A stretch of DNA of 64,000 nucleotides from Haliclystus octoradiatus (taxonomy: Eukaryota; Cnidaria; Staurozoa; Stauromedusae; Haliclystidae), in the NCBI GenBank assembly GCA_916610825.1, contig OU744448.1:33999993-34063992 (forward strand), in the 5' to 3' direction. Shown piece after piece: positions 560 to 36,250 of this stretch. The notes beneath the pieces are model-generated. The model made no database searches. It was not told where the DNA came from and worked only from the letters and a program-made list of their open reading frames with translations. The translations under genes were made by a program, and so were the position numbers. The stretch's first letter is position 1, and every line of letters begins with the position of its first letter.

Positions 560-611
560 CGATTGCAAGGGCGACTCCAAAGAGCAATACGAATAGTAGT
601 GTTAACTTCAT
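560..611 (-). CDS. Arg-rich peptide gene 0: signal-peptide exon (partial gene)
   Basis: This is a minus-strand 52-bp exon with ATG at 611 directly after an acceptor (TTTTGTAG) and donor GGTATGTG after 560. It encodes MKLTLLFVLLFGVALAI plus the first base of a Gly codon, a classic hydrophobic signal peptide with an ALA cleavage context. Length (52 bp), phase (1) and sequence match the first coding exons of genes 1, 2 and 3 downstream; gene 3 differs by one residue (G-I-A for G-V-A). A matching 5' UTR exon ends at 948. The acidic and cationic exons would lie at lower coordinates and are not in the window, so whether this gene is functional is unknown. It is divergently oriented to genes 1-4. 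Confidence 0.7.
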
Positions 612-947
612 CTACAAAATATAATTGAAAATGAAATAATTATTAAACTGCAAAACCACAAATGGATATGCATTTATATAATTCCATCTCTAGCCTTCAA
701 AATATTTTTCCAAATTTATGACCAATAGAAAAAATAATCTAATGCGGATTAAGCACCTCATAAAACTTGAACTTTAAATCGATATTTATGATTAATCAAT
801 ATAGTGAAGTGCTCAAGTTATATATAAATTTTTGAAGAACATATCTTCATAAAGTGACCAAATAAACAGCTCGTTTCTTTACATTGAAATAATATACAAC
901 ACACTATAACGATACAGTCAATTACTTTTGAGCTACCACAAACTTAC

Positions 948-1260
948 CTTTGATTTTGAGTTGAATCTTTGTCAGATATCAAATGTTCAATGCCTTGTCA
1001 TACCAAATCATACCAAATTTTATAGGCAAGATGTTATTCTATATAACAATAACCTGTAGTTATTTCCTTTGATTATAATTCAATTCTACAAAACATTCAA
1101 TCATTTAGTTCTAAGATCAAGATAATGAGAAGAAGAAGCTTAAGAATTTTTTTTTTCAATAACAGAATACTTCCCATGAAGGATTTTCTTGTAGACGGGG
1201 GTGTAAACGTGCATAATGCTTATTCATTTTCACGGCCTGGGATTTCATTCGTGATCCATG
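948..1260 (-). promoter_or_regulatory. 5' UTR exon and promoter of peptide gene 0
   Basis: Read on the minus strand, the sequence ends ATCTGACAAAGATTCAACTC...CAAAG followed by donor GTAAGTT (exon end 948). This matches the 5' UTR exon ends of gene 2 (21227) and gene 3 (26421). Further upstream an ACGTTTACACCC block (about 1200) matches the ACGTTCACACCC block of the other promoters. The region between them has diverged, and the TATAAAG box of genes 1 and 2 is not obvious at the equivalent place; a CTATAAAA lies nearer the exon end at about 1018-1025. Confidence 0.55.
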
Positions 1261-2545
1261 CAATGATTCATAGGGAGAATTTTTAGACTTTTAGCAGATT
1301 TCAAACTATTTCCATTCCTAGTAAGCTCTGGTTATTGCCTTATTCCCATTAAATTCATTAGAAATAGTTTAGATGTGATTTACGACTATTTTTGAACATT
1401 TAGTTCTCAGTTAGAACAAAATTTCAGAATTGAATCTCTCATTGGTGATTGAAAATTCTGGAAAATTTAATTTACATAATTGGTAGTAGAATTATGGATT
1501 TACCTTAATGTGATTGAGTGTAGCTCATGAATTTAAAGAAAAGATTACTTTCATTAATAAAAAATAGTAATATTAGGAAAAACAATAAAAAATCAACGAT
1601 AATAGATGATATTATTTATTGCATATTTTGTTCTCGCATTGATAAATCAAGCTATGGGTAATATTTAAAACAAGCTCGAACTCTATATTTCACTATTAAT
1701 AGCAAATTTTATCTCCAGTTTCACCAAAACTACATTTAATTAATTAAATTATAATTAACATAAATTTTATAGCTATATATTATAATTCAACTTTTCTATA
1801 TTGTTATAGTGTACACTACTAGTTTAGTGATTCATTTACTCAATTGATTTAATGACTTTAGTGTTTTTTTAAGATGTATGGACGGTAATAAAATCAAGTA
1901 TTAGCTGATGGTACTGTTAACTTTTTAATAAATTTTCAAAAAAAATAGCATGAAAAAAGAATTAATAAACAATGTAAAATTATATGCCTTCACTCCCCCC
2001 TCTTTCTTGATTAATTCAGAAAAAGTCTATCAATTCGATTCCTTGTTTAAATAATTTATAGAGGAAGAAGTTCCAAATGGTTTGTTTATCTGCTGTAGTA
2101 TCTTTGCAAAGAGTGCCAAAGGAGTATATCAATTCACATTGTTATTAACAACAACAGGATCAAATAGACCCATCAAGGGAAGATGAATTGTGAAGATTAT
2201 ATACTTTGATTTGCTCAGCCGATTTGAATAATAATTTTAATTTATAAAATAAAACACTGCTAACATTTGTCACGCATCAAAATTGATGTTATTGATTGAG
2301 AGGAAGAAGTTTAAAATGGTTGTCTCTCTGTTGTATTATCTTTGCAAAGAGTGCCAAGGGAGTATATATCAATTAACATTGTAGTTAAAAATAACAGGAA
2401 GAAAAAGAATTGTAAACGATTTGAAAGTGCGATGTGTAAGGAATAAAAGCATAATTTGAAATGCTAATGCCCATGTCAAAGGTCGGAAAACTTTCTAGGC
2501 GCTCAAATGTTTGAAAGTTCGACTCTAACAATAAAACGACGCATC
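960..2545. repeat. 1.6-kb segmental duplication, copy 1 (gene 0 upstream region)
   Basis: Collinear with 3550-5190. Shared landmarks include the CATACCAAATCATACCAA block, GACGGGGGTGTAAACGTGCA, and two internal copies of a GAGGAAGAAGTT...TTTGCAAAGAGTGCCAA module (near 2060 and 2300 here; near 4690 and 4943 in copy 2). Many small indels separate the copies, so the duplication is not recent. No coding exon is recognised inside. Confidence 0.75.
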
Positions 2546-3549
2546 AGCTAGCGTTTTTATCACTTTTTATAGTCACACATCAAAATAAATTTTAAATTTT
2601 GGCTTGCTTCTCGTTGTTTTTCAAATCTGTTTTACAAATCGGATATACAATCTTGAAGGCTGAGGCTGTTTTTGAAATCATAGGATGAGATAAATAGGCT
2701 TCAAAACAACTGGTCATTAAACGCCCAATTTCAAAAGATTCAAGTCAAGAAATTATCAAAGAGTATGGCACAATAGAGAATATTTATACCTGTATTCAAT
2801 TAAAGTTGTCACTGGCAATTTTGTAAGCTTTTATCAAATATTTGTTTTTGCGTGAAAGAAGAAAGAACTAATGAAGATGCGATATGAATTGATATACCAA
2901 AGCTATTGTGAACAGATTAACGAAGGGCCTGTTTAACTGGTCAACCAGGGTTATAAATGTGTAAGTCCCGGGTATGCTTTAAAAGGGGTGCTTAATATTT
3001 GGTTGTATAAGTATTTTTATTCATGGTACTTCTCGCCTTAGAGGTCATGAAGTAAAATATAATCTAAAACTTGATCTTAAAGAAGTTTTGCCTCAATATA
3101 ATTTTGTAGGCCATCGAGAATAAATACTGTGCCGATGAAACCATGAAATGTAAATGGATCATCAAGTTGTCTGCAGATTCTCCCTCTATTCGACTGTCCA
3201 AGTCTCATTTTGACAAATTGACATTTTGAAATAATATCAAATTATTCTAATGAATATCTCCCATTTCCTAAATGGATTTTTGTTGAAACCTTCACCATTG
3301 GGAAATCAATAGCATTTTTTGCGTTTTTGTTATGATTTAGGATAATTCCAGATAATTATCACGAAGTTTTTCACTTTAGAAAAGCATAAACAATAAGAAA
3401 TAATAAAGTGAGAATGAACTCTGAAATGAAAATATTTGAGTATTGAAAGTATTTGGATTCATATACTTTACTCACATGGAAGTCGTATCAATCCAAGATT
3501 TCAGAAGAGAACAACAGCATTATACATTTGTTACATAATATGTTACAAA
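2546..3549. other. No gene recognised
   Basis: AT-rich spacer between the two copies of the segmental duplication. I see no splice-bounded coding exon, structured RNA or element ends. Confidence 0.4.
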
Positions 3550-5190
3550 TTATTGCACATCATCAAATGTACAAAGCCTTGTCATACCAAATCATACCAA
3601 CTTTTGCAGGCAAGATGTTATTCTACATCAACAATAATCTGTTGTTATTTCCTTTGATTACAATTCAATTCTACAATACATTCAACCATTTAGTTCTAAG
3701 ATCTAGATAATGAGAGGAAGAAGTTATAAGAATGTTGTTTATTTCTTTCCAAGCAGAATACTTCCCATGAAGGATTTTCCTGTAGACGGGGGTGTAAACG
3801 TGCATAATGCGTATTCATCTTCACGGCCTGAGATTATCATTCGTGAACCATGCAAATGCAATGATTCAGAAATGAGAACTTTTAGACTTTTAACATGTTT
3901 CAGAACCGTTGACGTACTCTAGTTATTGCCTTTTTCTGATTAAAATCGATTAGAAATAATCTAGATTTGATTTCAGACTACCTGTGAACTTTAAATTCTC
4001 ATTTGAAAAGCACACTGTGCTTGAAGGTATTGATATAAGTAACTAAGCACGCACTAAGAAATGACTTATTAGCAAAATATGGACTTTCAATGTACTCCTT
4101 TTATTATTTTTAGACCTGATAGAGGTATAGGAAGATATTTGGAATTAAGGGAACTTCATACTTAGGAAATTTCAGAACAAAAATTGAAAATTCTTGAAGA
4201 TTTTATTAACATAATTGATTAAATGGCTTGGCATTAATTTGATTGACCATAGCTCATGAACTGAAAGGCAAGATTACTGTCATTAAGATAAAATGGTAGT
4301 TTTAGGGAGAACGATAAAAAATCAAGGATAATAAATGATATTATTGTCATTATTTATTTCATTAAATCAAGCACTGGGTGATATTAAAAACGTTCTCGAA
4401 ATTCATATTTTACTAGCAAATTGCAATTTCTATGTCAGATTTATTGAAACCACGTTAAATTAATTAAATTTATTAAATAAATTATAAATGAGATAGATTT
4501 TATAACTATATCTTATATTTTGTTTTCTCTTTATTGTCATTGTACGCTACAGTTGCTGTATATTGATACATATGCTCAGTAAGTTTAATGACTTTAGTAT
4601 TTGGTTTAAGATGGTGGACTGTAATAATTTCAAACATTAACTGATAGTATTGTTAGGATTAAATCAGAAATAGTCTATAAATTTGGTTCCTTATGTGAAT
4701 GATTTATAGAGGAAGAAGTTCCGAATGGTTTGTTTCTCTGCTGTAGTATCTTTGCAAAATAGTGCCAAAGGCGTATATCAATTTACATTGTTAATAACAA
4801 CAACAGGATCAAATAGACTCATCAAGGGAAGGTGAATTGTAAAGAATATTACAATACTTTGAATTGCTCAGCCGATTTGAATAATAATTTTAATTTATAA
4901 AATAAAACACTGCTACATTTGTCACGCATCAACCTATGTGAATGATTTAGAGGAATAAATTCCAAAATTCCAATTTGTTGTGTCTCTCTGCTGTAGTATC
5001 TTTGCAAAGAGTGCCAAGGGAGTATATCAATATCAAGGGGGAATTAACAATAACAGGAAGAGAAAGAATCGTCAACGAATTGAAAGTGCGAAGTGTAAGG
5101 AATAATGGCATAATTTGAAATGCTCAGGGCTAGATCAAACGGTTGGGAAACTGTCGAGCCGCTCTAATTTTTTCAAAGTTCGATTGTAAC
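3550..5190. repeat. 1.6-kb segmental duplication, copy 2, with relic peptide promoter
   Basis: Second copy of 960-2545. It includes the promoter/5' UTR portion in minus orientation (3550-3860), but similarity stops near 3550, just before the 5' UTR exon donor, and no signal-peptide exon follows. It is therefore the remains of a duplicated peptide gene whose body was lost. Short open frames here (3436-3922) are accidental. Confidence 0.65.
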
Positions 5191-5344
5191 AGAAATTTTG
5201 AGCGTGTTGGCGTCAAACGTCAAACCACAATAGTCGCTCCATAATGGCCATAATGTCGGCTTTAACATAAATTATGTTTATAATTAGTATAGAAACAAAA
5301 CAACGACACATCAACTAGCCTTTTAAGGACTTCTGTTAAGCTTG

Positions 5345-5960: not shown

Positions 5961-6135
5961 ACTAATGATAAAGCGGTTTCATGAGTCAACAAGCACAACG
6001 CAAGTTCTAGCAGAATCTTGTATTTTAATTATAATCATTTGCTTATATAGGCTATATGAAAACGAGGTTAACATATAGAGAGATTATAGCAAAAGGGCTA
6101 AATATATATATAAATAACATTTAAGTAATATCACA
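5946..6135 (-). repeat. Candidate 3' LTR of the broken gypsy element
   Basis: On the minus strand a purine-rich GATGAAGGGAAGC tract, a polypurine-tract candidate, is followed by TGTGATATTACTT. The segment ends CATACGACA near 5946, giving TG...CA ends and about 190 bp. A TATATAAGC promoter-like motif lies inside. The partner 5' LTR is absent, so the ends are inferred from position only. Confidence 0.4.
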
Positions 6136-6180: not shown

Positions 6181-6594
6181 TTAATCTAACCCAAATCCAA
6201 TTGGGGGATGAGATATTCTCGTTGAACGTCTTACTGGTTTATCTGGTCGGGATATGTTTAGATCATTTGGTACAACAGGCAACGATGATGAGGTAGTATG
6301 GGTAAGATTAGTATTGGAGGATGATTGTTCCCCTTCTAAATTAGTTGCGGGAGGGGTATTGACAATTTGATTGTTTGATGCTAAGACAGTCCTCTTTCCC
6401 ACTTGTAGCCATGCTGTATTAGAGCCCTTGAAAATGACAAATTCAGCTTTTTGAGAAGGAGTGGAATTTTTAGGCTTATACATTACAATGTCTCCAGGGA
6501 CATGATCAGGAATAAAGGGGACTCTCAAATTTCTCCCCATTAAAATTTGTGCAGGTGAGATACCGCTAGCGTTAGAAGTTGTTCGGTGAACCAG
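6181..6594 (-). pseudogene. Gypsy integrase C-terminal segment
   Basis: The open minus-strand frame ending at 6181 encodes the end of a Ty3/gypsy polyprotein. It shows an IS-PAQILMGR motif (integrase core end), a PGDIVMYKP segment typical of the post-integrase domain, then a Ser/Thr-rich tail ending in an RRSTRISHPP-like motif. Upstream of the first Met (6540) the same frame continues toward 6596, where it is interrupted by the (AC)n tail of a nested LINE. The matching N-terminal part of the integrase lies at 9509-9976, so the two halves are about 2.9 kb apart. Confidence 0.75.
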
Positions 6595-9508
6595 TGTGTG
6601 TGTTTGATATTATTTTACTTCGTTGATAAAATGAGCAATGCCTGCTCGTTTACATTATTACGAAGGAGATAATATTAATACATTCAAGATAAATTTTAAA
6701 AATAATAATAGTAGCAGTAAGTGAAGTATATACTTGATTAATTAATCTACATAAGCTTGTTACAAAATTATGTGGTAGGCCATAATCATTGGGTTAAATT
6801 TGAAAATGAAATGTTTTTACTCTTTTTAAATCTATTAGTGTAATTCATAGATTATTCTGCCAATTAATTCAATAACTAATATGGATCAGTGTTGAAGTAT
6901 CCAAACAATTTTAAGGAAATAAAATGTTCTTCAGCAGCAGAATTAAATTTCTGTATAGATAATGATTTAATTTCTTCAGTAAGCATAGTCCATAGTCTTA
7001 TTGACATAACTACAAAACTGAAACTCATCTTCTTGCAATTTACGGTTGGTGTCTTCAATCGGTGTTCCCCTCTTAGACAGTATTTTGATGATGATGTTTT
7101 AAAAAGTTGTCTAATTAATAAAGGTCGTGATGTTGTGAGGGTGCCGTGCAAGATAGTCACTAATTTTACAGATCTTCTAATTGCTAGATCAGAGATGTTC
7201 TTGAAGTATGAATCATTTACTCTGAAATGACGTAGTGCCTTTCTTTGAAAGCTGTCCAACTTTGAAAGTTCAGAAACAGGCAGGCATGTCAGAAGTGGAC
7301 TTCCATACTCTATGTGTGGACGGATGTATGTTTTATAGAAGTTTACTGATATACTGCTGGTTAGAGAATGGCGTAGTTGTCGCAGTTGATGGAGTGCAAA
7401 GTTGCCTTTCTTTAAACAGTTTTTTAATTGAATTTTCATGTTTAGCTTTTCGTCAATAATCACGCCAAGCAGTTTGATTGTATTTGAGAAAGGTATCTCT
7501 GATAATCCAACTTTGATTTTTGGTATAGGTAGCAACACTTTTGAATTTACGATGTTGATAGTTTGGGTTTTTCCAGTGTTTAATATCATATAATTGTCTA
7601 AGAACCAATCGTGTACCTTACGTATATCAGTATTGATGATCGATATTGCTTGCGTAGTGCACTTATGGTGGACATAGAGTGTTGTATCGTCGGCATAGCG
7701 AATTAAGGATGATGAAAGTTTCAGCATAGAGAGGTCATTAACATATACATTACATAGCAGAGGTCCTAAAATTGAACCTTGTGGTACTCCACGTGGTGTT
7801 TCATATGGTGTCGACAGTGTGTTGTCCACACGGACGGATTGAGTGCGGCCAGTTAGATAGCTTTCTATTAGAGCACAGCTGTTTAAATCCAGGCCATAAC
7901 TCTTCAATTTTTCTAGAAGCATACCATGATGTATCATATCAAAGGCTTTAGATAGGTCCAATGTTGCTATTGTTGTACTCTGTCTACTGTTCAAGGCGTT
8001 TGTGCAATCTTGCGTTAGCTTTAAGAGTGCCAGTTCTGTGTTGTGTCTCGGAATAAAACCATACATGTCTTTTGAAAATTTCAAAAGAAAGTGAGATTGC
8101 AGCTGCTTCGTTAGTATTTTCTCCAGAATTTTTGATATATGAATTAAAATTGCAATAGGTCTATAATTCTCATGCTTTGTACGATCACCTTCTTGAATAC
8201 AGGTGTAGTGATACCATGTTTCCAAGCAGAAGGAGATTCGCCAATTGAAATTAGATGATTAAACAAAGTTGCTATTGCTGGGGTAAGCCCTGATGAAATT
8301 GACTTTAAAAATACCACTGATATTGAGTCTGCTCCTGTTGCTTTGTTGTTTTTCATATTGGATATTATTTTATATATTTCAAAGTCAGATGTTGGTGAAA
8401 AACTAAATGTTCCATATTGTTGATTTTTAATTGTAGTTATACTACTATGCTGTTGTAGCTGCGAATCAGTGAGTGGTAGAGGGAAAGGTATACACGATGA
8501 AAAATGATCACGTATAGTAGGTTTGCTTTGGATTCAGCTGAAGTATGTAGCTTGTTGTTGTGAAAAATTGCAGGTATCGAAGTAGATTTATCTTTTCCAA
8601 TTCCAGTGATGGTTTGTAGACTGCGATGGAACTTGGCAGGGTCGCTATGTGATGATGCAATAAGGAAGCGTTGGGCGGATTTTCTTTTAAGGCTAGTAAC
8701 TAGATTTCTCTGAGCTTTGAATTGGGCTAGTATGGCAGGAGTGCGAGGTAATTTCGAAAGTTTGTCTCTATGGCGAATCGCTTCTTCAATCTCACTGTTT
8801 ATCCATATTGGTCTTCTAGCTTTAATTAATCGTGTTTTCAGAGGGGCTTATTCATTTATTAGCATACTCACTTTGTCAAACCAAATTTTACAGACTTCGT
8901 CAGCATTTCGTGGGTTTCCATCCAAGTCCGAGTAAACATTTTCCAATTGCAGTGAGGCAAGTTCATAATTCAGTGCTTCAAAATCAGTCTTCTTTGTCTT
9001 TCTGAATGTGATTTTCTTTGCTGGTAGGCGTTGTAGTTTATTCTTCATCTGAGCCATGCACATACTGTGGTCAGACGCACCTGTAGAAATTACTTTTGAC
9101 GAGTAGAAATAATTATGGTGGCTTGTCATGATTGTGTCCAGAATAGTACCTGATGCTGGTCGTGTTACTTCATTTATCAAATTGCTGAATGCAAAGTCTG
9201 CTATATACTGTTTCAGAGTATTTTGTGCACTTGGGTTTGTAATTTTCGTGCTTAAATCAAAATTTAGGTCTCCCATTATCACAATGTGAGAGTTTCTAGG
9301 AATTATGCTCTCTGAAATTGATCTCAGTTGATCAAAGTACAACTGCAATGGTGTATCCGGTGGCCTGTAAGTAGATATGACCGTGAATGTTTTGTATCCA
9401 AAGTGTATATCAAGTACAATAGCTTCAATGTTTTCTCTTTCTAGTGAGTGTCTTCTTCTGCATTTAATATCATTACGGATGTATAACGCAAGGCCGCCAC
9501 AGTAAAAT
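6594..9508 (-). mobile_element. LINE A: 5'-truncated CR1/L2-like retrotransposon, decayed
   Basis: Minus-strand fragments in order: C-terminal half of an APE-type endonuclease (MGDLNFD, SGTILDTI, GASDH; ORF 9348-8848, with coding similarity starting about 9507 at a GGLALYI segment), a linker (8356-8144), and a reverse transcriptase with [25 protein letters not shown] and YADD motifs (8225-6876). Frames shift between the pieces, so it is dead. The 3' UTR ends with TGTAAACGAGCA, ATTGCT and (AC)n, the same end as LINE B at 53.1 kb, so both belong to one lineage. It is inserted in a gypsy integrase gene: gypsy coding sequence resumes on both sides. Confidence 0.85.
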
Positions 9509-10893
9509 TTTGTTTAAAAATTTAAATTTTCATATTTCGAGGCCAAGCTTTCATGGCACGTTTCACTGTTTAAAAACAGTCTTCTCTGCTAGGCCGTTAG
9601 CGCGGGGGAAGTAAGCTGGTGATTCAGATTTATAACAGCCAGATTTGGCAAACCAGGAAATAATAGCGTCATTCACAAATTCTTGCGCGTTGTCAGACAC
9701 TAAATGTTTTGGGACGCCCAAACGGGCAAAAAATGACGAAAATATTCGTATGATATTTGCAGGACACCGGTCTGGGCATCTGAACACTTCAATCCAGCCG
9801 CTACCAGCGTCAGCAATTAATAATATATTTCCTATATCTGAAACATGACCGAAATCCATATGTAATCTCTCCCAGGGTCTAACTTTTGGCCATTCATGCA
9901 CTGATCTAGCAGTCTTAGGACGCAGATTACAGCATTTTTCGCACGAGGATACATAACGGTCAATGTCGTGAGCCATGCCTGGCCACCGAGCACTCTTGGC
10001 AAGAAAGCGCTGAGTTGAATTTATACCCTGATGGGTGGAATGTGCCTATTCGAGAATAGATTTACGCAGCGATTTAGGAATAAAGGCAATGGAACCGAAA
10101 ATAATAGCGTCATTATGTATATTTAGATTTTGACTCAATCGAGCAAATGGACGCTCAGCTTCACTGGGGGCAGTCCAATTCCCAGTAATAATTCGCTCTT
10201 TGATGGATTTTGCAACAACATCAAGATTTGTAGCAGTTTGTAAATCAGAAAAAGCGATAACAGGTTGAATAAAAGCCTCGTCACAGCTACGTGCTACTTC
10301 AACAGACGCGACGACGTCTTCACGTGAAATATTGGAAGACAATAAGAGGCGAGATAGAGCGTCAGCATGACAAATTTCAGTTCCAGGCCTGTGCTGAATA
10401 ACAAAATCATATGCCATTAATTTTATGGCCCAACGACTGACACGAGCAGAAGCAGTTTTTGGAACGGGCTGGTCAGCACCAAACAGTTGAATTAAGGCCT
10501 TATGATCTGTAATGAGAGTAAAATGACGACCTAAAAGTAATTGGCGTAACCTTTCAACACACCAGATAATGCCAAGGGCTTCTCGTTTGGTTGCTGAATA
10601 CTTATGCACAGCAGGAGTTAGCGATTTCGAGATAAAAATGATAGGCTGACCGTTTTGAGTGAGAACACGTGCAAGGCAGTTATCGGATGCGTCAGTGGTT
10701 AAAGTTGCTTCTTTTAGCAAAGAATAAGGTTGAACAATGGGTTGACTTGAAAGTTCGGATTTAAGATTTTCAAAGATCGAGCACAGTTATTGTTCCATTC
10801 AAAAGGTGTGTCTTTCTTTCGAAGTGAATTCAGAGGCTTTATTTTGTCTGCAAAATTGGGGATAAATCGGCCAAAAAATTTAATCCAATCCAT
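9509..10893 (-). pseudogene. Gypsy pol fragment: RT end, RNase H, integrase N-terminal half
   Basis: Minus-strand coding segments. Near 10893-10720: end of RT (FGRFIPNFADKIKPL, then LRKKDTPFEW). 10720-10046: Ty3/gypsy RNase H (TDASD, SKSL, KREALGI, TDHKAL, HRPGTEICHADALSRL). 9976-9563: integrase with a CEKC zinc-binding half, a first catalytic Asp in HMDFG, a second in LVSDNAQEF, and Glu in GLAEKTV. Stops and frameshifts separate the blocks. The integrase continues into about 9510, where LINE A interrupts it; the rest is at 6181-6594. The upstream end abuts the promoter of peptide gene 1, and Gag, protease and most of RT are missing. Confidence 0.85.
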
Positions 10894-10949
10894 ATATTTA
10901 TTATATGTATTTATTGAAATATAATAATAATTTATGGAATTATTCTCTT

Positions 10950-11150
10950 TTACATTATTTGAGCAGTGTGTAACTTGGCATGGGTGATGGACGTTCACAC
11001 CCTTGTTCACAATAAACTTTTAACGCAGAACGCATAAAAGACTAAGCGTCACGGTTTCTAACTTCTTCCTCTCGTCAACAAAATGAAAAACAAAGTCTCA
11101 ATTATAATCAGATAAAAAGATCATGAACCAACTCAAATTTATTGTTATTC
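10950..11150 (+). promoter_or_regulatory. Peptide gene 1 promoter module, first copy
   Basis: Contains GTGTAACTTGGCATGGGTGA, ACGTTCACACCCTTGTTCAC, AATAAACT, a TATA-like CATAAAAG (11033-11040), and CTAACTTCTTCCTCTCGTC. The same string of blocks recurs at 17400-17648, 20905-21060 and 26040-26220, each time upstream of a peptide gene or gene relic. This identifies it as the shared core promoter/leader rather than a random repeat. The transcription start is not determinable here. Confidence 0.65.
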
Positions 11151-11440: not shown

Positions 11441-11972
11441 CAATAAATTTTTGTCGCTCCATAGATTGAAATGTTGCATATAAACTTGTTATTAAGGTGT
11501 GTGAAAAGCATTGTAGAGTTTGTATCGGACGAAGATTCAAATCAAAATGGAGGCATGTGAATATATTTGTGATATCTATGTGAAAACGCCAGCCTGTATT
11601 TTTATTGGACCTTCTGATGATTGGTTACAGTTACTGTTGTTGACAAATTAATATTTAACTTGATTAATTTGAACGAATTTCAATAGATTTAAAATTCACG
11701 TTTCATTAGAAATCATTCTTTAATTTTGCTCTCTGCTATCTGCTTGGGCAATTATAAGGAAAATTAGTGTGTAAAGAGATTTAGTAAGGAATTTATATTT
11801 TGTGAATTGTGATGATCATATGTTCAAGAAACCTCTATTGGATATATCTTTTATTGTGAATTGTGTGTGATTTAATGACGTTATGTTCGTTACGTGTATG
11901 TGTTTTTCACCACTATTACTTTCTATGTGTTTTTTTTTGAAATATTTATTCTATTACAATTATATCTTTCAG

Positions 11973-13993
11973 ATGAATTTAACCTTACTTTTCCTGTTTC
12001 TCTTTGGAGTCGCTCTTGCCCTTGGTATGTATATTTATGCAAACGGAAATATCATTCAAAAGTAATATTTCTGTTCTACTGTTTGAAAATAATAATCGAA
12101 AAACTGATTCTATGCGTTTAATAATACGAAAAAACGTACTTCTTTGTTGGGAACAGCATCCCGGTGGATATAATTTGCCTTGCTAAACAATGGGACATTC
12201 CCAACTTTCATAATTAACAATTGAGTCGTCTAATCTATAAGTAATATTGAATTTCTTTAATTTGGGATTAGGTTCCTTCCGTGATGAAGATGAACGAGAT
12301 TACGGTAAGATTCAATTCGCGCATTATTTTCCAATAACAGTATAGACTGGTCCTAAAGAATGAAAGTTTGGAAGTTGAAATGCATTTTTGAATTTATTTT
12401 CTAATGACTCAAAATATCATATTAGACTCTCAATTGTCAAGGTCATATTTCTGAGATTATTACCATGATAGATATCAAAATTAGTATAAGCCATGAGAGT
12501 ATTAAATATTTATTTCTTGAAATTTTGGACTGCCTTCCAATTGCCTTTGTGTATTAGTCTAGAGGGGCATTGAGCGTCAATTTACTAAATTATTTTTTGA
12601 ATTCAAATAAAATGGAGCATGCATTTCAACATTCCATTTTTCTTTGACAAGTCTAATATACAGGTTTGCCATTAAACAATATTTTAACAGTCTTTCTCGA
12701 TAATGAAACGAAGAATCCTTTAAGTATCTTGCTAGACACCGGAAATTCCCAAACGAATATATAATAGTGAGTTCCTGACTGTTTTCATTTAAAGTCACAT
12801 TGTGGGTACTTATAAATTTTGGGCTCCTCTCAACAAGGGAATGGCACATCATGAAGATTATCGGCATCACTGCTGGAAACAGCAAAATCTACGGCAGAAA
12901 CCAAAATACAAGTAATACAATTATCGGCATATCCATTTGCATACCGCCTAATTAGAAGTACTCCAGTTTTCTCAAATATACCAAGTTTACTTTGATGCAA
13001 ATAAGAGCAGTGTACGTGAATGTCACAAATAATCACAAAGGCTTGACTGGATCTAGTATATTTGTAAATTTCGAGCTAATGTGTATTTTTCTTATGCATT
13101 TCCTCAGATGAAAATGAGGAGAATGAAGATGAGGAATTAGCTGTGCAAGGTACTTGACTATTTCGTAAATGTTAAGTTAGATCATACATCATGACATTTG
13201 CAATAATGTATACTTCCTTTGAATCTTATTTAAATCTCCTGTTTTTTTGAAAGTTAACTTTCTGCTGATCACTATAGTAATCCTTTCCCTGACTGTGGTC
13301 TTACTATAACGTTAAAGCTTTTATTTATTAAGGAAGAAGCAACAATCAATCATTAGTTTTTGAATGTAATGTATGTTGAAAGTACATTGGTAGATTAATT
13401 TGAAAAAATAAGATTCACTGAAAAAAAAACAAGCAACAGAATTGCTAGAAATACGCCACATGCCAGAAATTTAATCGTTTGAAGCCTATTCGTTTACTTA
13501 CAATGATTGATCATGATGAATGCATAAATTTCATTCAGTTGGATGTGAATGCTGGTTAGATACGAATAGTATCTCCAACGCAAAGCTGTTAGGTATGAAC
13601 CACTGGGAATATTTGGGTTATTTATTCAGCTATTTCAGTCAGGTTGAATGTGCTCATATTAACATACATCATCATGTGCAATGATATGAGACGTAGGATG
13701 ATAATTATCATACGAGATTATCTGAAAATAAAGTGACATTAGACTAACGATGGACATTAGACTTTGAGTTACAGGATAGTATATTGATATTTTAGAAAAT
13801 ATTCCAATCACCATGTCTTTTTTGCTGATGTCGGACCTTGTTATGTGAAAGTACTGTGATTACATTGGTATTTATTCCCATTCATTGTTTCTTGTTATTA
13901 GATTTAGAGATAGAAGATCCAAAACCATGGACTGGTCGTCGTCGTAGCACCCCTCGCCGCCGTCGTATTGAACGTCGCCGCCATAACTGGTAA
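11973..13993 (+). CDS. Arg-rich peptide gene 1 (secreted, charge-split precursor)
   Basis: Four coding exons: 11973-12024, 12272-12304, 13108-13149, 13902-13993, with GT..AG introns all in phase 1. They encode 72 aa. Residues 1-16 are a hydrophobic signal peptide; about 19-47 are strongly acidic (blocks such as RDEDERDY and ENEENEDEE); from the DPKPW motif on, the tail is basic with 10 Arg in three runs and ends HNW. The start is fixed because ATG follows the acceptor directly. A 5' UTR exon (end about 11552) precedes it, but its donor reads GC rather than GT (GAGGCATGT). AATAAA lies at 14066. The acidic half probably neutralises the cationic half until cleavage; role as an antimicrobial peptide is inferred from charge layout and resemblance to arminins. 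No homologue search was possible. Confidence 0.8.
13236..13440 (+). promoter_or_regulatory. Conserved block in intron 3 of gene 1
   Basis: About 205 bp nearly identical in intron 3 of genes 1, 2 (22896-23105) and 3 (28450-28660), including the 14-bp palindrome GAAAGTTAACTTTC, CTGATCACTAT, GACTGTGGTCTTAC and a long A-rich segment. Genes 1 and 2 differ at only about three positions over 200 bp. It may be an intronic enhancer, or reflect gene conversion; the sequence does not decide. Confidence 0.5.
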
Positions 13994-21639: not shown

Positions 21640-24173
21640 ATGAAGTTAACCTTACTTTTTCTGTTTCTCTTTGGAGTCGCTCTTGCCCTTGGTATGTATA
21701 TTTATTCAAACGGAAAAATCATTCAAAAGTAATATTGCTGTTCTACTGTTTGAAAATAATAATCGAAAAACTGATTCTATGCGTTTAATAATACGAAAAC
21801 ACATACTTCTTTGTTGGGAACAGCATCCCGGTGGTTATAATTTGTCTTGCTAAACAAATGGGACATTCCCACCTTTCATAATTAACAATTGAGTCGTCTA
21901 ATCTATAAGTAATATTGAATTTCTTTATTTGGGATTAGGTTCCTTCCGTGATGAAGATGAATGAGATTACGGTAAGATTCAATTCGCGCATTATTTTCCA
22001 ATAACAGTATAGACTGGTCCTAAAAAATGAAAGTTTGAAAGTTGAATTGCATTTCGAATTTAATTATTTTTTCTAATGGCTCAAAATATCATATTAGACA
22101 CTTTCAATTATCACGGTAATATTTCTGAGATTGTTACCTTTAAAGATGTCAAAAGTTATTATAAGCCATATATAAGAGTATTAAATATTTATTTCTTGAA
22201 ATTTTGGACTGCCTTCCAATTGCCTTTGTGTATTAGTCTAGAGGGGCATTGAGCGTCAATTTCCCAAATTATTATTTTAACTCAACTAAAATGGAGCATG
22301 CATTTCAACATTCCACTTTTCTTTGACAAGTCTAATATACAGGTTTGCCATTTTAAGCAATATTTTAATAATCTTTGTCAATAATGAAACAAATAATCTT
22401 TCAAGCATCTTGATAGAAACCCCAAACACCCAAACGAATATACAATACTGAGTTCCTGACTGTTTGCCTTTGCAGTCCCATTTGAGTAATTATCCACGTT
22501 CGCTCATCTCAACACGGGGATTGGACCATCATGAAGATTTCTGGCATCACGGCTGGAAACAGCAAATTCTACAGCAGAAACCAAAACACACGTAATACTA
22601 TTATAGGCATATCCACTTCTACACTGCCTAATTAGAAGTACTCCAGTTTGTTTAAATATACCGAGTTTACTTTGATACAAATAAGAGCTGTGTGCGTGAA
22701 TGTCACAAATAATCACAAAGGCTTGACCGGATATAGTACCTTTGTATTTTTCTTATGAATTTCCTCAGATGAAATTGATGACAATGAAGATGAGGAAGTA
22801 ACTGCGCAAGGTACTTAACTATTTCGTAAATGTTAAGTTAGATCATACATTATGACATTGGTAACAATTTATGCTTCCTTTAAATCTTATGTACATCCCT
22901 GTTTTTTTGAAAGTTAACTTTCTGCTGATCACTATAGTAATCCTTTCCCTGACGGTGGTCTTACTAAAACGTTAAAGCTTTTATTTATTAAGGAAGAAGC
23001 AACAATCAATCATTAGTTTTTGAATGTAATGTATGTTGAAAGTACATTGGTAGATTAATTTGAAAAAATAAGATTCACTGAAAAAAAAACAAGCAACAGA
23101 ATTGCTAGAAATACTCCACATGTCTGAAATCGTTTGAAGCCTATTCGTTTACTTACAATCATTGATCATGATGTATCCATAAATTTCAGTCAATTGAATG
23201 CTGATTGAATACGAGTAGTATCTCCAACGCAAAGCTGTTAGGTATCAAATGCTGGGAATATTTGAGTTATTTATTCGGCTATTCCAGTCAGGTTGGATCT
23301 GCTCATATTAACATAAATCATCATGTGCAATTATGTGAGATGTCACAATGATACTAATTATTATACGAGATTATCTGAAAATAAAGTGACATTAGACTAA
23401 CGATGGACATTAGACTTTGAGTTACAGGATAATATATTGATATTTTAGAAAATATTCCAATCACCATATCTTTTTGGTGATGTCGGACCTTGTTATGTGA
23501 AAGTACTGTGATTACATTGGTATTTATTCCCATTCATTGTTTCTTGTTATTAGATGAAAATAGAGAAGATTCAAAGCCATTATTCATTGGTCATCGTCTT
23601 TTCGGCCGTCGCCGCCGTACACATGGTAAATGAATCAGCAGACTTTAATCCATATGTAGCGGCTGTGGCGTCTATCGTTTGAAGCCTATTCGTTTACTTA
23701 CAATCATTGATCATGATGTATCCATAAATTTCAGTCAATTGAATGCTGATTGAATACGAGTAGTATCTCCAACGCAAAGCTGTTAGGTATCAAATGCTGG
23801 GAATATTTGAATTATTTATTCGGCTATTCCAGTCAGGTTGAAACTGCTCATATTAACATAAATCATCATGTGCAATTATGTGAGATGTCACGATGATACT
23901 AATTATCATACGAGATTATCTGAAAAGAAAGTGACATTAGACTAACGATGGACATTAGACTTTGAGTTACAGGATAGTATATTGATATTTTAGAAAATAT
24001 TCCAATCACCATATCTTTTTTGCTGATGTCGGACCTTGTTATGTGAAAGTACTGTGATTACATTGGTATTTATTCCCATTCATTGTTTCTTGTTATTAGA
24101 TGAAAATAGAGAAGATCCAAAGCCATTGTTCGTTGGTCGTCGTCGTTTCGGCAGTCGCCGCCGTGCATGGTAA
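21640..24173 (+). CDS. Arg-rich peptide gene 2 with duplicated last exon
   Basis: Exons 21640-21691, 21939-21971 and 22769-22810 encode the signal peptide (MKLTLLFLFLFGVALAL), a GSFRDEDE-type acidic block and a second acidic block (DDNEDEE). There are two alternative last exons 545 bp apart, both phase 1: 4a (23554-23633; SKPLFIGHRLF, RRRR, ending HGK, TGA stop) and 4b (24100-24173; DPKPLFVGRRRFG, RRR, ending AW, TAA stop). Products are 68 or 66 aa. The HGK end could be a C-terminal amidation signal, while 4b ends in Trp. AATAAA occurs only after 4b (24258). 4a also contains ATG-GTAAAT, a possible donor that would join 4b in frame. Function as a cationic defence peptide is inferred. Confidence 0.8.
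22896..23120 (+). promoter_or_regulatory. Conserved block in intron 3 of gene 2
   Basis: Copy of the intron-3 block at 13236-13440, including GAAAGTTAACTTTC and the following A-rich segment. It is more similar to gene 1 than the adjoining cationic coding exons are. Confidence 0.5.
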
Positions 24174-26660: not shown

Positions 26661-28987
26661 ATGAAATTAACATTACTATTTGTATTGCTCTTTGGAATTG
26701 CTCTTGCCATTGGTATGTTTATTTATTTAAACTAAAAGATTATTCAAAAGTAATGTTGCTGTTCTACTGTTTGTGAAAATAACATTCGATAAACTGATTA
26801 AATGCATTTCACGATTTTTCCGAATCTTTGTTTGGCTGGGTGTTGGACATAAGGGATAAAGACAATTAGTTTTCATTACTTTTCATTTTTAGAAGAATCA
26901 ATTATATTACTTCGACATTGCACTAGATAGACGAAGTTATATTGCTATATACATCGTGGATTTCTTTAGCGTATATGATTCCTGGAAGAGAAAGATTCAG
27001 AATCGGTGTTCAACTTCATACACTATTAACTACTTATAAGCAACATGTTTATATCTACTAATTTCCAATTATAGAACCAATTGAGGAATTTAATCTATAA
27101 GTAATTTTGATTCCTGTTCTTAAATTTGGATTTAGGTTCTTTCCGTGATGAAGATGAACGAGATCACGGTAAATTTTAATTTGCTCATTCTAATAAACAG
27201 TATAGGCTAGTCCAAAAAATGAAAGTTTGAAAGTTGAATTGAATTCTCGATTTCATTTTTCCAAATGGGTAAAAATATAATATCAGACTTTCAAATTCCA
27301 TGTTAATAGATCTGAGATTGTTTCAAAGTCAACATTCCAACTTTCATTCTTCTTTGACAAGTCTAATATACATTTTTGCATCTAACAGCATTTTATTTAC
27401 CTTCGTAAAATATGAAACGAAGAGAGCAGAACAGGTAAAACTGATGATATAATGGTCATACAGTAGTCATAAAGTCTAAATGAGTATCATCTTCGATACT
27501 TCCTCTTTGTATACGGGTATCCTTAGTAGAATTTTGCCAGCAACCCAAAATACCCAAGCGAATATATAGTTCCTGACTGTTTGCATTTTTTTTTTTTTTT
27601 TTTTGGTTTTTTATTTTTCCACAAACCGGGTAAGCTTGCAACTTTTTTTCACTGGGGTGGTTGGTTAATTTGTTAGTATTTTTTGAAGCTTGTGTGCATT
27701 TTATCGCCGGATGCCCTTCCTGACGCCAACCTATAGTGCTATGGTCAGGGATTGAACCCGAGACCATGCGGGGCATGGTCCAACGCCCTAGCCACTACAC
27801 CAATGCCGCAATTAACAATTAGAAGTCCCATTTTGGTACTTATCTATTTTGAGCTCCTCTCAACAAGGGGATGGCACATCATAAAGATTATCGGCATCAC
27901 AGCTGGCAACAGAACATTTTACAGCGGAATTCAAACACACATAGTGCAATAGGCATATCTACTTGTATACAGCATAAATACAAGTACTACAGTTTGTTTG
28001 AATATATCGCGTTTACTTTGATGCAAATAAGAGCTGTGTGCGTGAATATCACAAATAACTACAAATGCTTGAATAGACCTATAGTACATTTATAGATTTC
28101 AAAATTCGAACTATTGTGCATTTTTCTTATGTATTTCCTCAGATGAACATGAAGACAATGAAGATGAAGAAATAGCTGTGCAAGGTACTTGACTATTTCG
28201 TAAATGTTAATTACATAACGATATAGATATAGGATGTAGTATTTTGTATAGTTAGCTGCATAGTATATAGGTTTACTTTCATATTTTATAGTCAATAATG
28301 TAGATACTGATTTTAAATGTTTCATAAGTGATTTTTCCAAAGGTTTGTTTAGAATAATAAAGACCCTAAAAGTTAAAAAAATTCGATCATACATCATGGA
28401 CATCATGACATTTGCAATAATGTATACTTGCTTTGAATCTTATGTACATCTCTGTTTTTTTGAAAGTTAACTTTCTGCTGATCACTATTGTTATCCTTTC
28501 CCTGACTGTGGTCTTACTAAAACGTTAAAGCTTTTATTTATTAAGGAAGAAGCGACAATCAATCATTAGTTTTTAATGTAATGTATGTTGAAAGTACATT
28601 GATAGAGCAATTTGAAAAAGTAAGATTCACTGAAAAACAACAAGCAACCAAATTGCTAGAAATACGCCACATGCCTGAAATTTAATCGTTTGAAGCCTAT
28701 TCGTTTACTTACAATCAAAACATTAGACTTTGAGTTACCGGATTATATATTGATATTTTAAGGGAATATTCCCATGATCATATTATTTCTACTGATGTCC
28801 ATCATTGTTACGTAAAAGTATTGTGATTACATTGACATTGATTCCCATTTATTGCTTCTTGTTATTAGATGAAGAGAGAGAAGATCCAAAGCCATTATTT
28901 TGGCGTCGTCGCCGTCGTCGTCGTAGCAGCCGCCACCGCCGCCGCCGATTTACAGTTAGATTCAACTGGCCTGTTGGTCGCAAATAA
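26661..28987 (+). CDS. Arg-rich peptide gene 3
   Basis: Exons 26661-26712, 27136-27168, 28143-28184 and 28869-28987, all introns phase 1, encode 81 aa. The signal peptide is MKLTLLFVLLFGIALAI; acidic blocks are FRDEDERDH and EHEDNEDEE. The last exon begins DEEREDPKPLFW and continues with a seven-Arg run, an SSRH spacer, a four-Arg run, and a more hydrophobic end finishing VGRK, a potential amidation/processing site. In all the tail has 14 Arg. AATAAA (28983-28988) overlaps the stop codon; the sequence aligning to this end in gene 1 is 3' UTR, so the C-terminal extension probably arose by a deletion that brought UTR into frame. A SINE sits in intron 2. Confidence 0.8.
27585..27808 (-). mobile_element. 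tRNA-derived SINE, copy 2, in intron 2 of gene 3
   Basis: On the minus strand, the A-box-like GTGTAGTGGCTAGGGCG and B-box GGGTTCAATCCC are followed by GGAAGGGCATCCGGC and an A-rich tail (T-run 27588-27604 on the plus strand). The orthologous intron positions of genes 1 (about 12785) and 2 (about 22465) lack it, so it inserted after the genes duplicated. The open frame 27456-27776 is a by-product. Confidence 0.85.
28450..28675 (+). promoter_or_regulatory. Conserved block in intron 3 of gene 3
   Basis: Third copy of the intron-3 block, with GAAAGTTAACTTTC and GACTGTGGTCTTAC intact and a few more substitutions than between genes 1 and 2. Confidence 0.5.
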
Positions 28988-33030: not shown

Positions 33031-33044
33031 TTATCGTCTGTTAA

Positions 33045-33177
33045 CTAACAATTGTTCATAATAGTACTTATTGTTGTCATAGAATTAAATTTTTGTATAA
33101 ATTGTGAAATTGGAAATATTGTAGACATTGAACATTTTGGTACTAAACTGTCAAGTTTATCTGGATTGGAAATCGAG
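33045..33177 (+). promoter_or_regulatory. Possible 5' UTR exon of peptide gene 4
   Basis: A GATTGGAAATCGAG end followed by GTAGGT (donor at 33178) lies 390 bp before the acceptor at the ATG of gene 4, matching the gene plan of genes 0-3. Sequence similarity to their 5' UTR exons is weak, and the promoter blocks of genes 1-3 are not recognisable, so this is tentative. Confidence 0.35.
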
Positions 33178-33566
33178 GTAGGTTGCAAATTAAATTATAT
33201 ACTAACTAAATATATAGGCCATCACAGCCTGTTTTATAATCTAGCTTATATTTAAAAAAATAAAATATATATAATTAAATGAGATAACAAAACTATTAAA
33301 GGCATATGATAGTACTGTTAATCCCTTTACCCCAATACTTATTTCATTTCCACAAATAAATTATCGAGGCATATTCTAATCAAGAACCATTAGGCCACAT
33401 TATAAATTGATTTTTTAGTTGTTCTATATGCTTGTGTTTGCTAAATACTGTATAAAATGTATGTGTGTGTGTGGATATGACTACTATCATTATACTGCAT
33501 ACATCTATCTCATGAACAGTTTTGAATCTATTTGATAAATTTGAATTTGTATATTTTTTTACATAG

Positions 33567-35235
33567 ATGAAGCTCACTTTACTTATTGTTTTGCTCTTTG
33601 GAGCTGCCCTTGCTATGGCAGGTAAGTTGACTAATTACATAACGATTTGTCATTATTATTTTGCTGTTGTTTTATTAGTCAACACTTGACATGCGAATAC
33701 AGGGAAAACCAACCCTTCAACTTATTTTACCATCCTTTAAAAATGATTATATACTGATTACAAAGACCATAAATTTGAGCTTAAGTAGATTTTGGCTTTT
33801 TCTATCTAAAATTTCAAAAGCATACATGCTACTAATGTTCTCTAAAACCTACTTTTGTCGGTAATATTCCTATTGATAAAGATGTCATTGATTAAAAGCT
33901 GTTTTAAGTTAAAAAATTTCCTATTATACACACTTTATAAAGTAAATATTTTTTTGTGGTATCAATTTACATCTTTTTAATTATATATCTTCCCAATTAT
34001 TTTAGAACCTATAATGAATGATGATCTTGAAGATGATCATGAAGATAATGACGATGGCGGTAAGTTTGATATATATAAGATGTTCTTAACTTTTTTACGA
34101 TTTGAGCCATATATATATCTATTCGTGTAGTGGTTAGAGCGTTGGATCTCGTCCTGCAGACTCTTTGGTCAATCTCTTAAAGCAATATTGGTCAGGAAGG
34201 GCATCTGACCATTAATCTGGCACACGCTACAAATAACTAATCAACTAGCCAACCATTTGGGTGAAAAGCTCTACTATGGCTTATACACGGTTTCTGGTTA
34301 AATTATAAATCGAAACATATTATAGAAGTCCTCTGATATTATTGTCAATTTGTTCCTAACTCTTAATGAGAGACTTGAATTCATATCTAGGATAGTTGCA
34401 TTTTACTATTATTGCTAGAACACCCGGCTAGAACACCGGAATATGATCCTTATGAACTTTGATGTAGCAGTAACGTTAAAATAGTCAAGACTTACTATAT
34501 CATGTAGGGATAACCACAGTTCACTATTGTTGTTTGATGTTTATATATTGAAACTGGTTGCAATTAATAACAGAACATAATTAGCTGCAATAAGCTCTTA
34601 AATATTTGAAATTTTTGTCATTTCCACTATTTAAACTTCGGTACAACGAAATGACATTTTGGTAGATTTTAATTGATGTCTGATTTGCTTGAAGGTGATG
34701 AAGAAAACGACGAAGAAAACAGCCCAGACGAAGAAGAACTTTCCGCCTTAGCAGAACAAGGTAAATAACTAACATATCATATGCTTAAAATAAAGCTGAA
34801 GATGGCCCGTTTTGACAGGAAAATGTACTTGGATTTGTTAAAAACTCCGAAGCTTCTGCTATTTGTTTTACTGTATATAGACTTTTGTAACAAGATTACT
34901 TACAAGATTTACAAGATTCTTAGTGCCTATCGTCCCAATGGTCAACTTTCCCCTTAACAACATTAATTTGTAATTGATATTGTGAATAAGTCAGTTCATA
35001 CACGAAGTTATTGTAAAAAAGGAGCATATGACATTGAATACCATGAAGCAATGATAAATTTTAATTTCAAATTTTAGATGAAAGTGCTGATCCTAAACCA
35101 TTCCTTTGGCGTCGTCGTACTCTCTTCCGTCGCCGACTTATCCGTCGCCGAATTATCAGACGCAGAACCTTAATCTTCAGAAGAAGACTTCTCAGACGAA
35201 GAATATTCTGGCGTCGTCGACGATCTGGAAAATAG
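33567..35235 (+). CDS. Arg-rich peptide gene 4 (long, repetitive Arg tail)
   Basis: Exons 33567-33621, 34006-34059, 34695-34760 and 35078-35235, all introns phase 1, encode 110 aa. Signal peptide MKLTLLIVLLFGAALAMA; two long acidic exons (DDLEDDHEDNDD; DEENDEENSPDEEE). The last exon starts ESADPKPFLW and continues as seven Arg triplets or quadruplets separated by 2-4 hydrophobic residues (patterns RRRLI, RRRII, RRRLL), 22 Arg in 44 residues, ending SGK, a potential amidation site. It is the most diverged family member, with longer exons. AATAAA is at 35258. Other possible functions for such a tail include nucleic-acid or matrix binding, but the signal peptide and acidic pro-part argue for a secreted precursor. 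Confidence 0.82.
34120..34320 (+). mobile_element. tRNA-derived SINE, degraded copy 3, in intron 2 of gene 4
   Basis: Begins GTGTAGTGGTTAGAGCGTTG (A-box region), with GGTCAGGAAGGGCATCTGAC and an ACGGTTTCTGGTTAAATTAT end, in the same order as the copies at 16.9 and 27.6 kb. The B box is poorly preserved. Confidence 0.6.
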
Positions 35236-35257
35236 ATGTGATTTCACAACACAATAC

Positions 35258-35263
35258 AATAAA
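35258..35263 (+). terminator. Poly(A) signal of peptide gene 4
   Basis: AATAAA 23 bp after the TAG stop. Confidence 0.65.
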
Positions 35264-36199
35264 ATCCTGCTAGTCAGATGAAGACATTTATATTTAACTA
35301 TCGTATATGTAAAAGTTTTGTAATAATGTGACTGTGTATACTTAATGATTAAACTTTATAAACAACCGTTTGAATGTAATATCTCGTGCATCATGTTGTT
35401 ATATCCTTATGCACCTATGATATATCGTTCATAGCATACGAGAGTGCGGCTCTTGCGATATTTTCTTGCAGATTTTATATAATTTTATGGATTAATATGC
35501 ACGAAAATGAATCGTATTTTATGCGTGTATACGATAGATAGCCCGAAGTTGTGGTATTCACGTCCTGTTCCGACATCTCTTCGATGATGTAATACTTCAG
35601 CAACATCATTTGCAGTATTTAGAACTTCAGTGTAAGGTACCACAACACCAACCTATTTTTACTGGCTTGAGAACCTATAAAAATGATACGTGTAGCGTAA
35701 TCTAGAACAGACATTTAATATAGGCCTACTAGCATATTAAACAAAATCCTGAAATAACGGTTCCGACTATAACGATATTCTGATAATAACAATAAGCCAA
35801 AATAATCCGATACCGAGTTATTTACGGTCAAATTTTGCTAAACATTTACCGCTAACAGCGGATTTTGCTAAGACCGGTAAATTAGTTTGTCTTCCTAGCA
35901 CATAGGTATTGCCGGATTCATTATCCGTTGTTTTTCCCTGTGGACCTTCTATTTTAGCAGCAGGTAAATGTTTATCTGTAAATGTATTAATAAATATAAA
36001 TATTAAGAAGTGTTTAAAAAATGGCAAGAAAGCTCCAAAAATATTAAATCATTTTCGGTGTTTTTTTTCATATACTATACCTTTCAGAAAAAGAAATTAC
36101 AGTCAAATGAAACATAATCTTATCCATGCGTAATTTGCCTTGATGCTAAGAGCCATGATGCATGATTGCTCAGTTTATTTATTTTTTAATTTAAAATCC

Positions 36200-36250
36200 A
36201 GCAATGATCATGAAGACACGGCATGAAGACAATGAAAATGACGATTTCGG
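36200..36250 (+). pseudogene. Relic acidic exon of a gene-4-like copy
   Basis: AATGATCATGAAGAC...CATGAAGACAATGAAAATGACGATTTCGGTATGT resembles exon 2 of gene 4 (34006-34059) including the donor, but the frame is disturbed and no signal or Arg exon is found nearby. I interpret it as the remains of a fifth plus-strand copy. Confidence 0.45.

What the first reader, a model, noticed from the sequence alone, without database searches (positions are those of the whole stretch)
560..36250. A clustered family of charge-split, arginine-rich secreted peptides resembling Hydra arminins
Seen: four complete genes and one partial gene share a signal-peptide exon, two tiny acidic exons and an Arg-rich last exon opening with a (D/S)-P/S-K-P motif; every coding intron is phase 1. 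Known: arminins of Hydra have a signal peptide, anionic middle and cationic C-terminus with a PKPW start, and act as antimicrobial and microbiome-shaping peptides. Inference: this is an arminin-like or convergent host-defence family, possibly undescribed in this organism. It is the best candidate for a new system here.
Basis: partly seen in the sequence, partly recalled or inferred. Interest (0 to 1): 0.85.

Follow-up and report, generated by a model that had tools for sequence, protein, structure and literature searches.

The report
Cluster of arginine-rich secreted peptide genes
An animal genome carries a small cluster of duplicated genes for secreted peptides whose acidic front half offsets an extremely arginine-rich tail, most likely a family of antimicrobial host-defence peptides built like, but not shown to be related to, the arminins of Hydra.

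Summary
Three intact genes (A, C, D) have four coding exons each: a signal-peptide exon, two small acidic exons and an Arg-rich last exon with D-P-K-P; all nine coding introns are phase 1, GT-AG. Corrections: gene B, counted as complete, has an in-frame TGA in exon 2 and a tandem-duplicated last exon. Gene Z (minus strand) runs off the left edge. At 36202-36249 there is only a lone acidic-exon-like piece.

The exons look coding: all six dN/dS values among A, C, D are 0.24-0.51, and D resembles the others in exons 1 and 4 but not in introns. Precursors C and D are nearly charge-neutral; tails are 42-47% Arg. No Pfam or NCBIfam cut-off was reached (A, C, D); PDB search of C and contig searches found no relative.

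The layout resembles arminins, but homology is unproven: local alignments to mature arminin 1a are at chance for all five tails; one of five global alignments (C) beats shuffles (9/5000). Tails are Arg-blocked, not helix-amphipathic.

Best reading: host-defence peptides, arminin-like by layout. Species, expression and activity unknown.

The parts
560..611 (-). Gene Z, exon 1 (signal peptide MKLTLLFVLLFGVALAI); other coding exons not found in the window
   Evidence: tblastn 6.66e-07 to a composite signal-peptide query
949..1064 (-). Gene Z, 5' non-coding exon and promoter region similar to those of A, B and C (approximate limits)
11461..11548 (+). Gene A, promoter and 5' non-coding exon (approximate)
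   Evidence: similar in B, C, Z
11973..12024 (+). Gene A exon 1, signal peptide
12272..12304 (+). Gene A exon 2, acidic
13108..13149 (+). Gene A exon 3, acidic
13902..13993 (+). Gene A exon 4, DPKPW and Arg-rich tail (10 Arg of 24)
21640..21691 (+). Gene B exon 1, signal peptide
21939..21971 (+). Gene B exon 2 with in-frame TGA
22769..22810 (+). Gene B exon 3, acidic
23554..23633 (+). Gene B last exon, first copy (DSKP, ends HGK)
24100..24173 (+). Gene B last exon, second copy (DPKP, ends AW)
26661..26712 (+). Gene C exon 1, signal peptide
27136..27168 (+). Gene C exon 2, acidic
28143..28184 (+). Gene C exon 3, acidic
28869..28987 (+). Gene C exon 4, DPKP, Arg-rich tail (14 Arg of 33) ending VGRK
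33567..33621 (+). Gene D exon 1, signal peptide
34006..34059 (+). Gene D exon 2, acidic
34695..34760 (+). Gene D exon 3, acidic
35078..35235 (+). Gene D exon 4, DPKP, tail of repeated RRR blocks (22 Arg of 47), ends SGK
36202..36249 (+). Lone acidic-exon-like piece, no partner exons found; probably a relic
   Evidence: (23 bp match to C exon 3)

Best explanation
A duplicated, clustered family of secreted host-defence (antimicrobial) peptide precursors. Shown from sequence: a hydrophobic N-terminus that reads as a signal peptide, an acidic stretch of about 30-45 residues (net -15 to -24), and a cationic Arg-rich tail (net +10 to +24 in intact genes) beginning at P-K-P, on four exons with phase-1 introns. 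Inferred: after signal-peptide removal the acidic part neutralises the tail until cleavage near D-P-K-P frees it; C and D tails (ending G-R-K and G-K) are then C-terminally amidated; the tail binds anionic microbial surfaces (LPS, teichoic acid, phospholipid) or nucleic acid through Arg clusters and damages or enters the cell. The layout is that of Hydra arminins; common ancestry with them is not shown.
For: Gene models and phases. Coding constraint among intact pairs A-C, A-D, C-D: dN/dS 0.24, 0.32, 0.30 for exons 1-3 and 0.29, 0.36, 0.51 for exon 4. D resembles the others in exon 1 (71-77%) and exon 4 (57-63%) but not in introns (45-51%). Charge separation beyond shuffles (1, 0, 0 of 20,000 for A, C, D) and precursors after exon 1 summing to +1 (C) and 0 (D), in line with the net-charge-balance idea for AMP precursors (passages of PMC7073735). 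Clustered paralogues, as for Hydra AMP families (passages of PMC10945409). In the A-B pair the tail exon diverges faster (21/74 or 35/80 mismatches) than intron 3 (44/739) and the 3' flank (22/222). C and D end in G plus basic residues.
Against: No transcript, protein or activity data. The tails contain many RRR sites that proprotein convertases could cut. Helical amphipathicity is absent. A (-5) and B (-8) do not balance charge, and PMC7073735 itself finds the balance weak in two frog species and absent in a third. Intact gene A has no amidation signal. B is broken, and the rapid tail change in A-B and B-B may reflect relaxed constraint, CGN-repeat slippage or gene conversion: A against B's first tail gives dN/dS 0.65, not above 1. 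In A-C the tail is not faster than all introns together (p 0.38) and exons 1-3 are not slower than intron 3 plus 3' flank (p 1.0). dS for pairs with D is near saturation (1.06-1.31). Other secreted basic proteins would look similar.
Confidence: 0.55

Rival explanations
1. True arminin homologues outside the genus Hydra (or arminins of an unrecognised Hydra genome): same gene family by descent, with expanded Arg blocks.
For: Same order of parts; KPW in A; C's tail (32 aa from KP) and arminin 1a (31 aa) both begin KP and end VG-basic-K; global alignment score 28 against shuffle mean -3.9, 9 of 5000 shuffles reach it. Placozoan arminin-like peptides are reported, by layout (passages of PMC12013895).
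Against: Local alignments at chance for all 5 tails and global alignments of the other 4 not significant (590-1933 of 5000 shuffles reach them). I cut the tails at KP because arminin starts there, which favours the global test; five tails were tried. PMC10945409 reports no homologues outside Hydra, even in Hydractinia and Clytia (passage). The arminin precursor and gene structure could not be compared.
Confidence: 0.2
2. Secreted polyanion-binding or matrix peptides: the Arg-block tails bind sulphated glycosaminoglycans, nucleic acids or mineral, and the acidic part stays attached as a charge-paired partner.
For: Tail D is a run of Arg blocks spaced by 2-4 mostly hydrophobic residues; its moment is high at 60 and 72 degrees (2 and 0 of 1000 shuffles reach it) and low at 100 degrees; A and B's second tail also peak at 60 degrees (2 and 0 of 1000). 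BBBXXBBB patterns recall heparin-binding motifs (recalled). No cleavage site was demonstrated.
Against: Tail C shows no such periodicity (657 and 643 of 1000 at 60 and 72 degrees). Short, varied tails and G-basic ends in C and D fit free secreted peptides better than structural proteins (inference).
Confidence: 0.15
3. Neuropeptide or hormone precursors with acidic spacers.
For: Signal peptide, acidic spacer and G-basic amidation endings in C and D.
Against: Cutting at the RRR sites of D would leave mostly 2-4-residue pieces (TLF, LI, II, TLIF, LL, IFW); no repeated peptide unit; tails differ strongly between paralogues.
Confidence: 0.05
4. Decaying duplicates with little current function; the Arg runs are CGT/CGC repeat expansions.
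For: B has a stop codon, the piece at 36202 is a lone exon, and Arg codons in tails A and C are 22 of 24 CGT/CGC against 5 of 17 in the neighbouring hydroxyacid-oxidase gene.
Against: dN/dS well below 1 among A, C, D; D encodes its 22 tail Arg with four codons (CGT 7, AGA 7, CGA 5, CGC 3); intact splice sites.
Confidence: 0.05

Closest known systems
Arminins of Hydra (arminin 1a)
   Same: Signal peptide, acidic N-terminal part, cationic C-terminal peptide starting KP(W), C-terminal G followed by basic residues (C, D), clustered paralogues, no cysteine in the mature arminin 1a or in these tails
   Different: 42-47% Arg tails in intact genes; RRR blocks; no helix-type amphipathicity; no significant local sequence similarity; precursors 72-110 aa against 88 aa (length given in PMC11820242, passage)
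Arminin-like AMP1-AMP4 of Trichoplax (PMC12013895, passages)
   Same: Signal peptide, acidic N-terminal region, basic C-terminal region, C-terminal glycine for amidation; named by likeness of layout
   Different: About 150-250 aa; basic region includes aliphatic residues; sequences not available for comparison here
Hydra periculins and HyCWR peptides (PMC10945409, passages)
   Same: Bipartite charge, clustered multigene families
   Different: Cysteine-rich; the tails here have no cysteine
Arg-rich AMPs in general (PMC9658076, passages)
   Same: Arg content above 25%
   Different: The paper counts 38 in mammals, mostly defensins and cathelicidins, and six or fewer in other animal classes of its database; the tails here lack cysteine

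Membership tests
Arminin family (Hydra) | Signal peptide, anionic N-terminal region, cationic C-terminal region | tested here: met
   (net -15 to -24, then +10 to +24 in intact genes); the signal peptide was judged by reading, no predictor was available
Arminin family (Hydra) | Conserved N-terminal part, poorly conserved cationic C-terminal part | tested here: inconclusive
   Nucleotide mismatches exons 1-3 vs exon 4: A-B 9/127 vs 21/74 (second tail), A-C 17/127 vs 26/83; dN/dS is below 1 in both parts for A, C, D
Arminin family (Hydra) | Mature peptide beginning KP(W) | tested here: inconclusive
   KP in 5 of 5 tails, KPW in 1 of 5 (A); the actual cleavage site is unknown
Arminin family (Hydra) | C-terminal glycine plus basic residues (amidation) | tested here: inconclusive
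   Met in C (GRK) and D (GK), absent in A and in B's second tail; in B's first tail only through a shifted frame
Arminin family (Hydra) | Alpha-helical mature peptide | tested here: inconclusive
   The tail exon of D alone folds as one helix, mean pLDDT 71.4, pTM 0.25, no alignment, but without amphipathicity at 100 degrees: 997 of 1000 shuffles reach its moment. A and C were not folded
Arminin family (Hydra) | Sequence similarity to a known arminin | tested here: inconclusive
   Local: 0 of 5 tails beat shuffles; global: 1 of 5 (C, 9/5000). Only mature arminin 1a was available, no precursor
Arminin family (Hydra) | Clustered paralogues in the genome | tested here: met
   Z, A, B, C, D within about 36 kb
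Arminin family (Hydra) | Restricted to the genus Hydra | not testable with these tools
   Species of the window unknown; no whole genome held
Arminin family (Hydra) | Antibacterial activity; high expression in endodermal epithelium | not testable with these tools
   No expression or bench data
Any catalogued family (Pfam-A, NCBIfam, PDB sequences) | Profile or sequence match above cut-off | tested here: not met
   Pfam for A, C, D (E up to 10): best E 0.084, all below curated cut-offs; NCBIfam for A, C, D (E up to 1): best E 0.023, a ribonuclease E model; PDB for C only: best E 0.72

The most novel reading that the evidence does not exclude
An arminin-type defence module (acidic pro-region, KP(W)-Arg start, G-basic amidated end, clustered and diversifying tails) exists outside Hydra, by common descent or close convergence, in a form whose tail is built from Arg blocks that kill or bind microbes without a classical amphipathic helix.
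Probability: 0.2. Interest if true: 0.7.

Novelty: new member of a known kind. Interest (0 to 1): 0.45.

Why it matters
Hydra's arminins and periculins are described as strictly confined to that genus and probably born de novo (PMC10945409, passages). A family with the same layout in another animal would show either that arminins are older than thought or that selection repeatedly arrives at the same charge-balanced precursor. Arg-rich AMPs are also few outside mammals in the database surveyed by PMC9658076 (passages).

Tried and rejected
Identifying the species failed: no whole genome is held; no Rfam family reached its gathering score and ARAGORN found no tRNA; a 34-base piece of the 136-bp satellite has no exact match in viral or genome contigs; the neighbouring hydroxyacid-oxidase protein matches L-lactate oxidase and hydroxyacid oxidase 1 chains best, which does not name a phylum. 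I weighed tunicate and hydrozoan from general likeness (recalled) and could not decide.

Relatives were sought with D alone in viral contigs and with the A-C-D alignment in viral contigs and genome contigs: 56, 451 and 594 stretches matched patterns, none was confirmed by tblastn. These collections are viral and prokaryotic, so absence says nothing about animals.

Six short strings from A, C and D were searched in the papers held: 0 papers. 'Arminin-like' and three similar terms: 10 papers, 8 listed; among those listed 'arminin-like' occurs in the placozoan paper (11 times) and once in PMC4179610, which I did not read. This covers only the open papers held.

Positive selection on the tail was considered and left as a hint: A against B's second tail gives dN/dS 3.06 and B against B 2.38, but A against B's first tail gives 0.65, and the comparisons rest on 23-26 codons, one broken gene and a repeat-prone sequence. 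The tandem copies differ at 7/66 in the exon against 8/399 in the flank.

A classical amphipathic helix was tested and not supported for any of the five tails.
Full report
What is there. The window is a 33% GC stretch, judged animal from its intron-rich genes and retroelements (inference), with LTR and non-LTR retroelements, a hydroxyacid-oxidase gene and, between about 560 and 36250, a cluster of small secreted-peptide genes. I rebuilt the genes from the sequence and checked the borders. A, C and D are intact: 72, 81 and 110 aa, four coding exons each, all nine coding introns phase 1, GT-AG. A similar 5' non-coding exon region with a TATA-like stretch lies upstream of A, B, C and Z, and A, B and C share a 3' region with AATAAA. 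In A the donor after this 5' exon would read GC rather than GT (my reading).

B is not a complete gene as read: codon CGA of A and C is TGA in B's exon 2. Exon 2 is 33 nt with phase-1 ends, so a transcript that skipped it would stay in frame, but there is no evidence that this happens; B is best called a probable pseudogene. B's last exon is doubled by a tandem duplication with an offset of 546 bp, and a 2-nt indel between the copies shifts the reading frame of the last residues. Z leaves the window. The element at 36202-36249 is a single open acidic-exon-like piece; blastn ties it only to 23 bp of C exon 3, and no partners were found by regular expression, tblastn or a scan for basic-rich frames. 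The acidic region continues into exon 4, so the PKP motif is not at the exon border.

Is it coding? Among the intact genes A, C and D all six dN/dS estimates (three pairs, exons 1-3 and exon 4) lie between 0.24 and 0.51, with few sites each and dS above 1 in five of the six. D's introns align with those of A, B and C at 45-51%, which I take as background, while its exon 1 is 71-77% identical and its exon 4 57-63%; its exons 2 and 3 are only 48-62%. Exons 1-3 of A and C differ at 17/127 sites against 414/1534 in introns (Fisher p 0.0005), though not against intron 3 plus 3' flank alone (p 1.0). Together these favour real protein-coding genes.

What the products look like. After exon 1 the summed charges of acidic exons and exon 4 are -11/+6 (A), -11/+12 (C) and -21/+21 (D), net -5, +1 and 0; B gives -8 with either tail. 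Split at PKP instead, the acidic part is -15 (A), -15 (C) and -23 (D; the script began one glutamate late, -24 with it) and the tails +10, +16 and +24; B's tails are +7. Arg makes up 42%, 42% and 47% of the intact tails. Arg codons in tails A and C are mostly CGT/CGC (22 of 24), unlike the neighbouring hydroxyacid oxidase (5 of 17; AGA 9), which hints at triplet expansion; D uses four Arg codons. Tail D is a series of RRR blocks separated by two to four mostly hydrophobic residues. Its hydrophobic moment is low at 100 degrees (997 of 1000 shuffles reach it) but high at 60 and 72 degrees (2 and 0 of 1000); C shows no such periodicity (657 and 643 of 1000). The tail exon of D alone, without an alignment, was predicted as one helix at mean pLDDT 71.4, pTM 0.25, which is weak.

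Rate of change. In the A-B pair exon 4 differs at 21/74 sites (B's second tail) or 35/80 (first tail), against 44/739 in intron 3 and 22/222 in the 3' flank (p 1e-7 and 2e-17; both tests use the same intron, up to the first copy, and the same flank, after the second). The tandem tails of B differ at 7/66 against 8/399 in their flank (p 0.002). dN/dS is 3.06 (A, second tail), 0.65 (A, first tail) and 2.38 (B, B). Divergence along A-B is patchy even outside exons (intron 1 3%, 5' flank 17%), so conversion is possible, and B is broken; diversifying selection is a hint, not a result. In A-C the tail (26/83) is faster than intron 3 (59/504) but not than all introns together (p 0.38).

Comparison with known families. 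Pfam and NCBIfam (A, C, D) gave nothing at a curated cut-off; the PDB search was made with C only and its best E was 0.72. In the passages I read, arminins are Hydra-only, with a conserved anionic N-terminal and a variable cationic C-terminal region, clustered and highly expressed (PMC10945409, PMC4820302); 'arminin-like' peptides have been named in Trichoplax by layout (PMC12013895). I compared the mature arminin 1a printed in PMC12011183 (passage) with all five tails. Local alignment: none exceeds shuffles (1648, 2204, 2568, 3889 and 4078 of 5000 reach the score for A, C, D, B first, B second). Global alignment: C scores 28 against -3.9 +/- 8.9 (9 of 5000); the other four are reached by 590 (A), 927 (D), 937 (B first) and 1933 (B second) of 5000. 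The C result rests on KP at the start and VG-basic-K at the end, and I cut the tails at KP, so it is suggestive only. Membership in the arminin family is therefore open; likeness of layout is clear.

Verdict. A family without a match in the libraries searched, of charge-split Arg-rich secreted peptides, most likely host-defence effectors offset by their acidic pro-region. Signal-peptide function, cleavage, amidation, expression and activity are inferred. The species is unknown, so whether the family is undescribed cannot be settled here.

Noticed in passing
window 41721-57551, +: Hydroxyacid oxidase gene that I joined by hand from six exons (Pfam FMN_dh, E 1.1e-112; exon positions), ending SKL, a peroxisomal targeting signal (recalled).
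   Followed up: partly
window 47228-49783: 136-bp satellite, 18.7 copies, inside an intron of the hydroxyacid oxidase gene, shortly before a LINE.
   Followed up: partly
window 49916-52986, +: Non-LTR retrotransposon in two overlapping frames with endonuclease and reverse transcriptase domains in the first; it holds GDIHPNPGP near the start, which resembles 2A ribosome-skipping sequences (recalled).
   Followed up: no
window 61292-63811, -: LTR-type element with one 839-aa frame in which Pfam (E up to 0.001) finds an integrase but no reverse transcriptase or RNase H; by eye it also has a zinc knuckle and a protease-like motif. A terminal-repeat copy seems to begin near 63890.
   Followed up: partly
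window 6181-11019, -: LTR retroelement fragments (RNase H, integrase) apparently interrupted by a second LINE with a reverse transcriptase.
   Followed up: no
window 3501-3680, -: A further copy of the upstream region of gene Z without a signal-peptide exon found nearby; probably another partial duplicate.
   Followed up: partly
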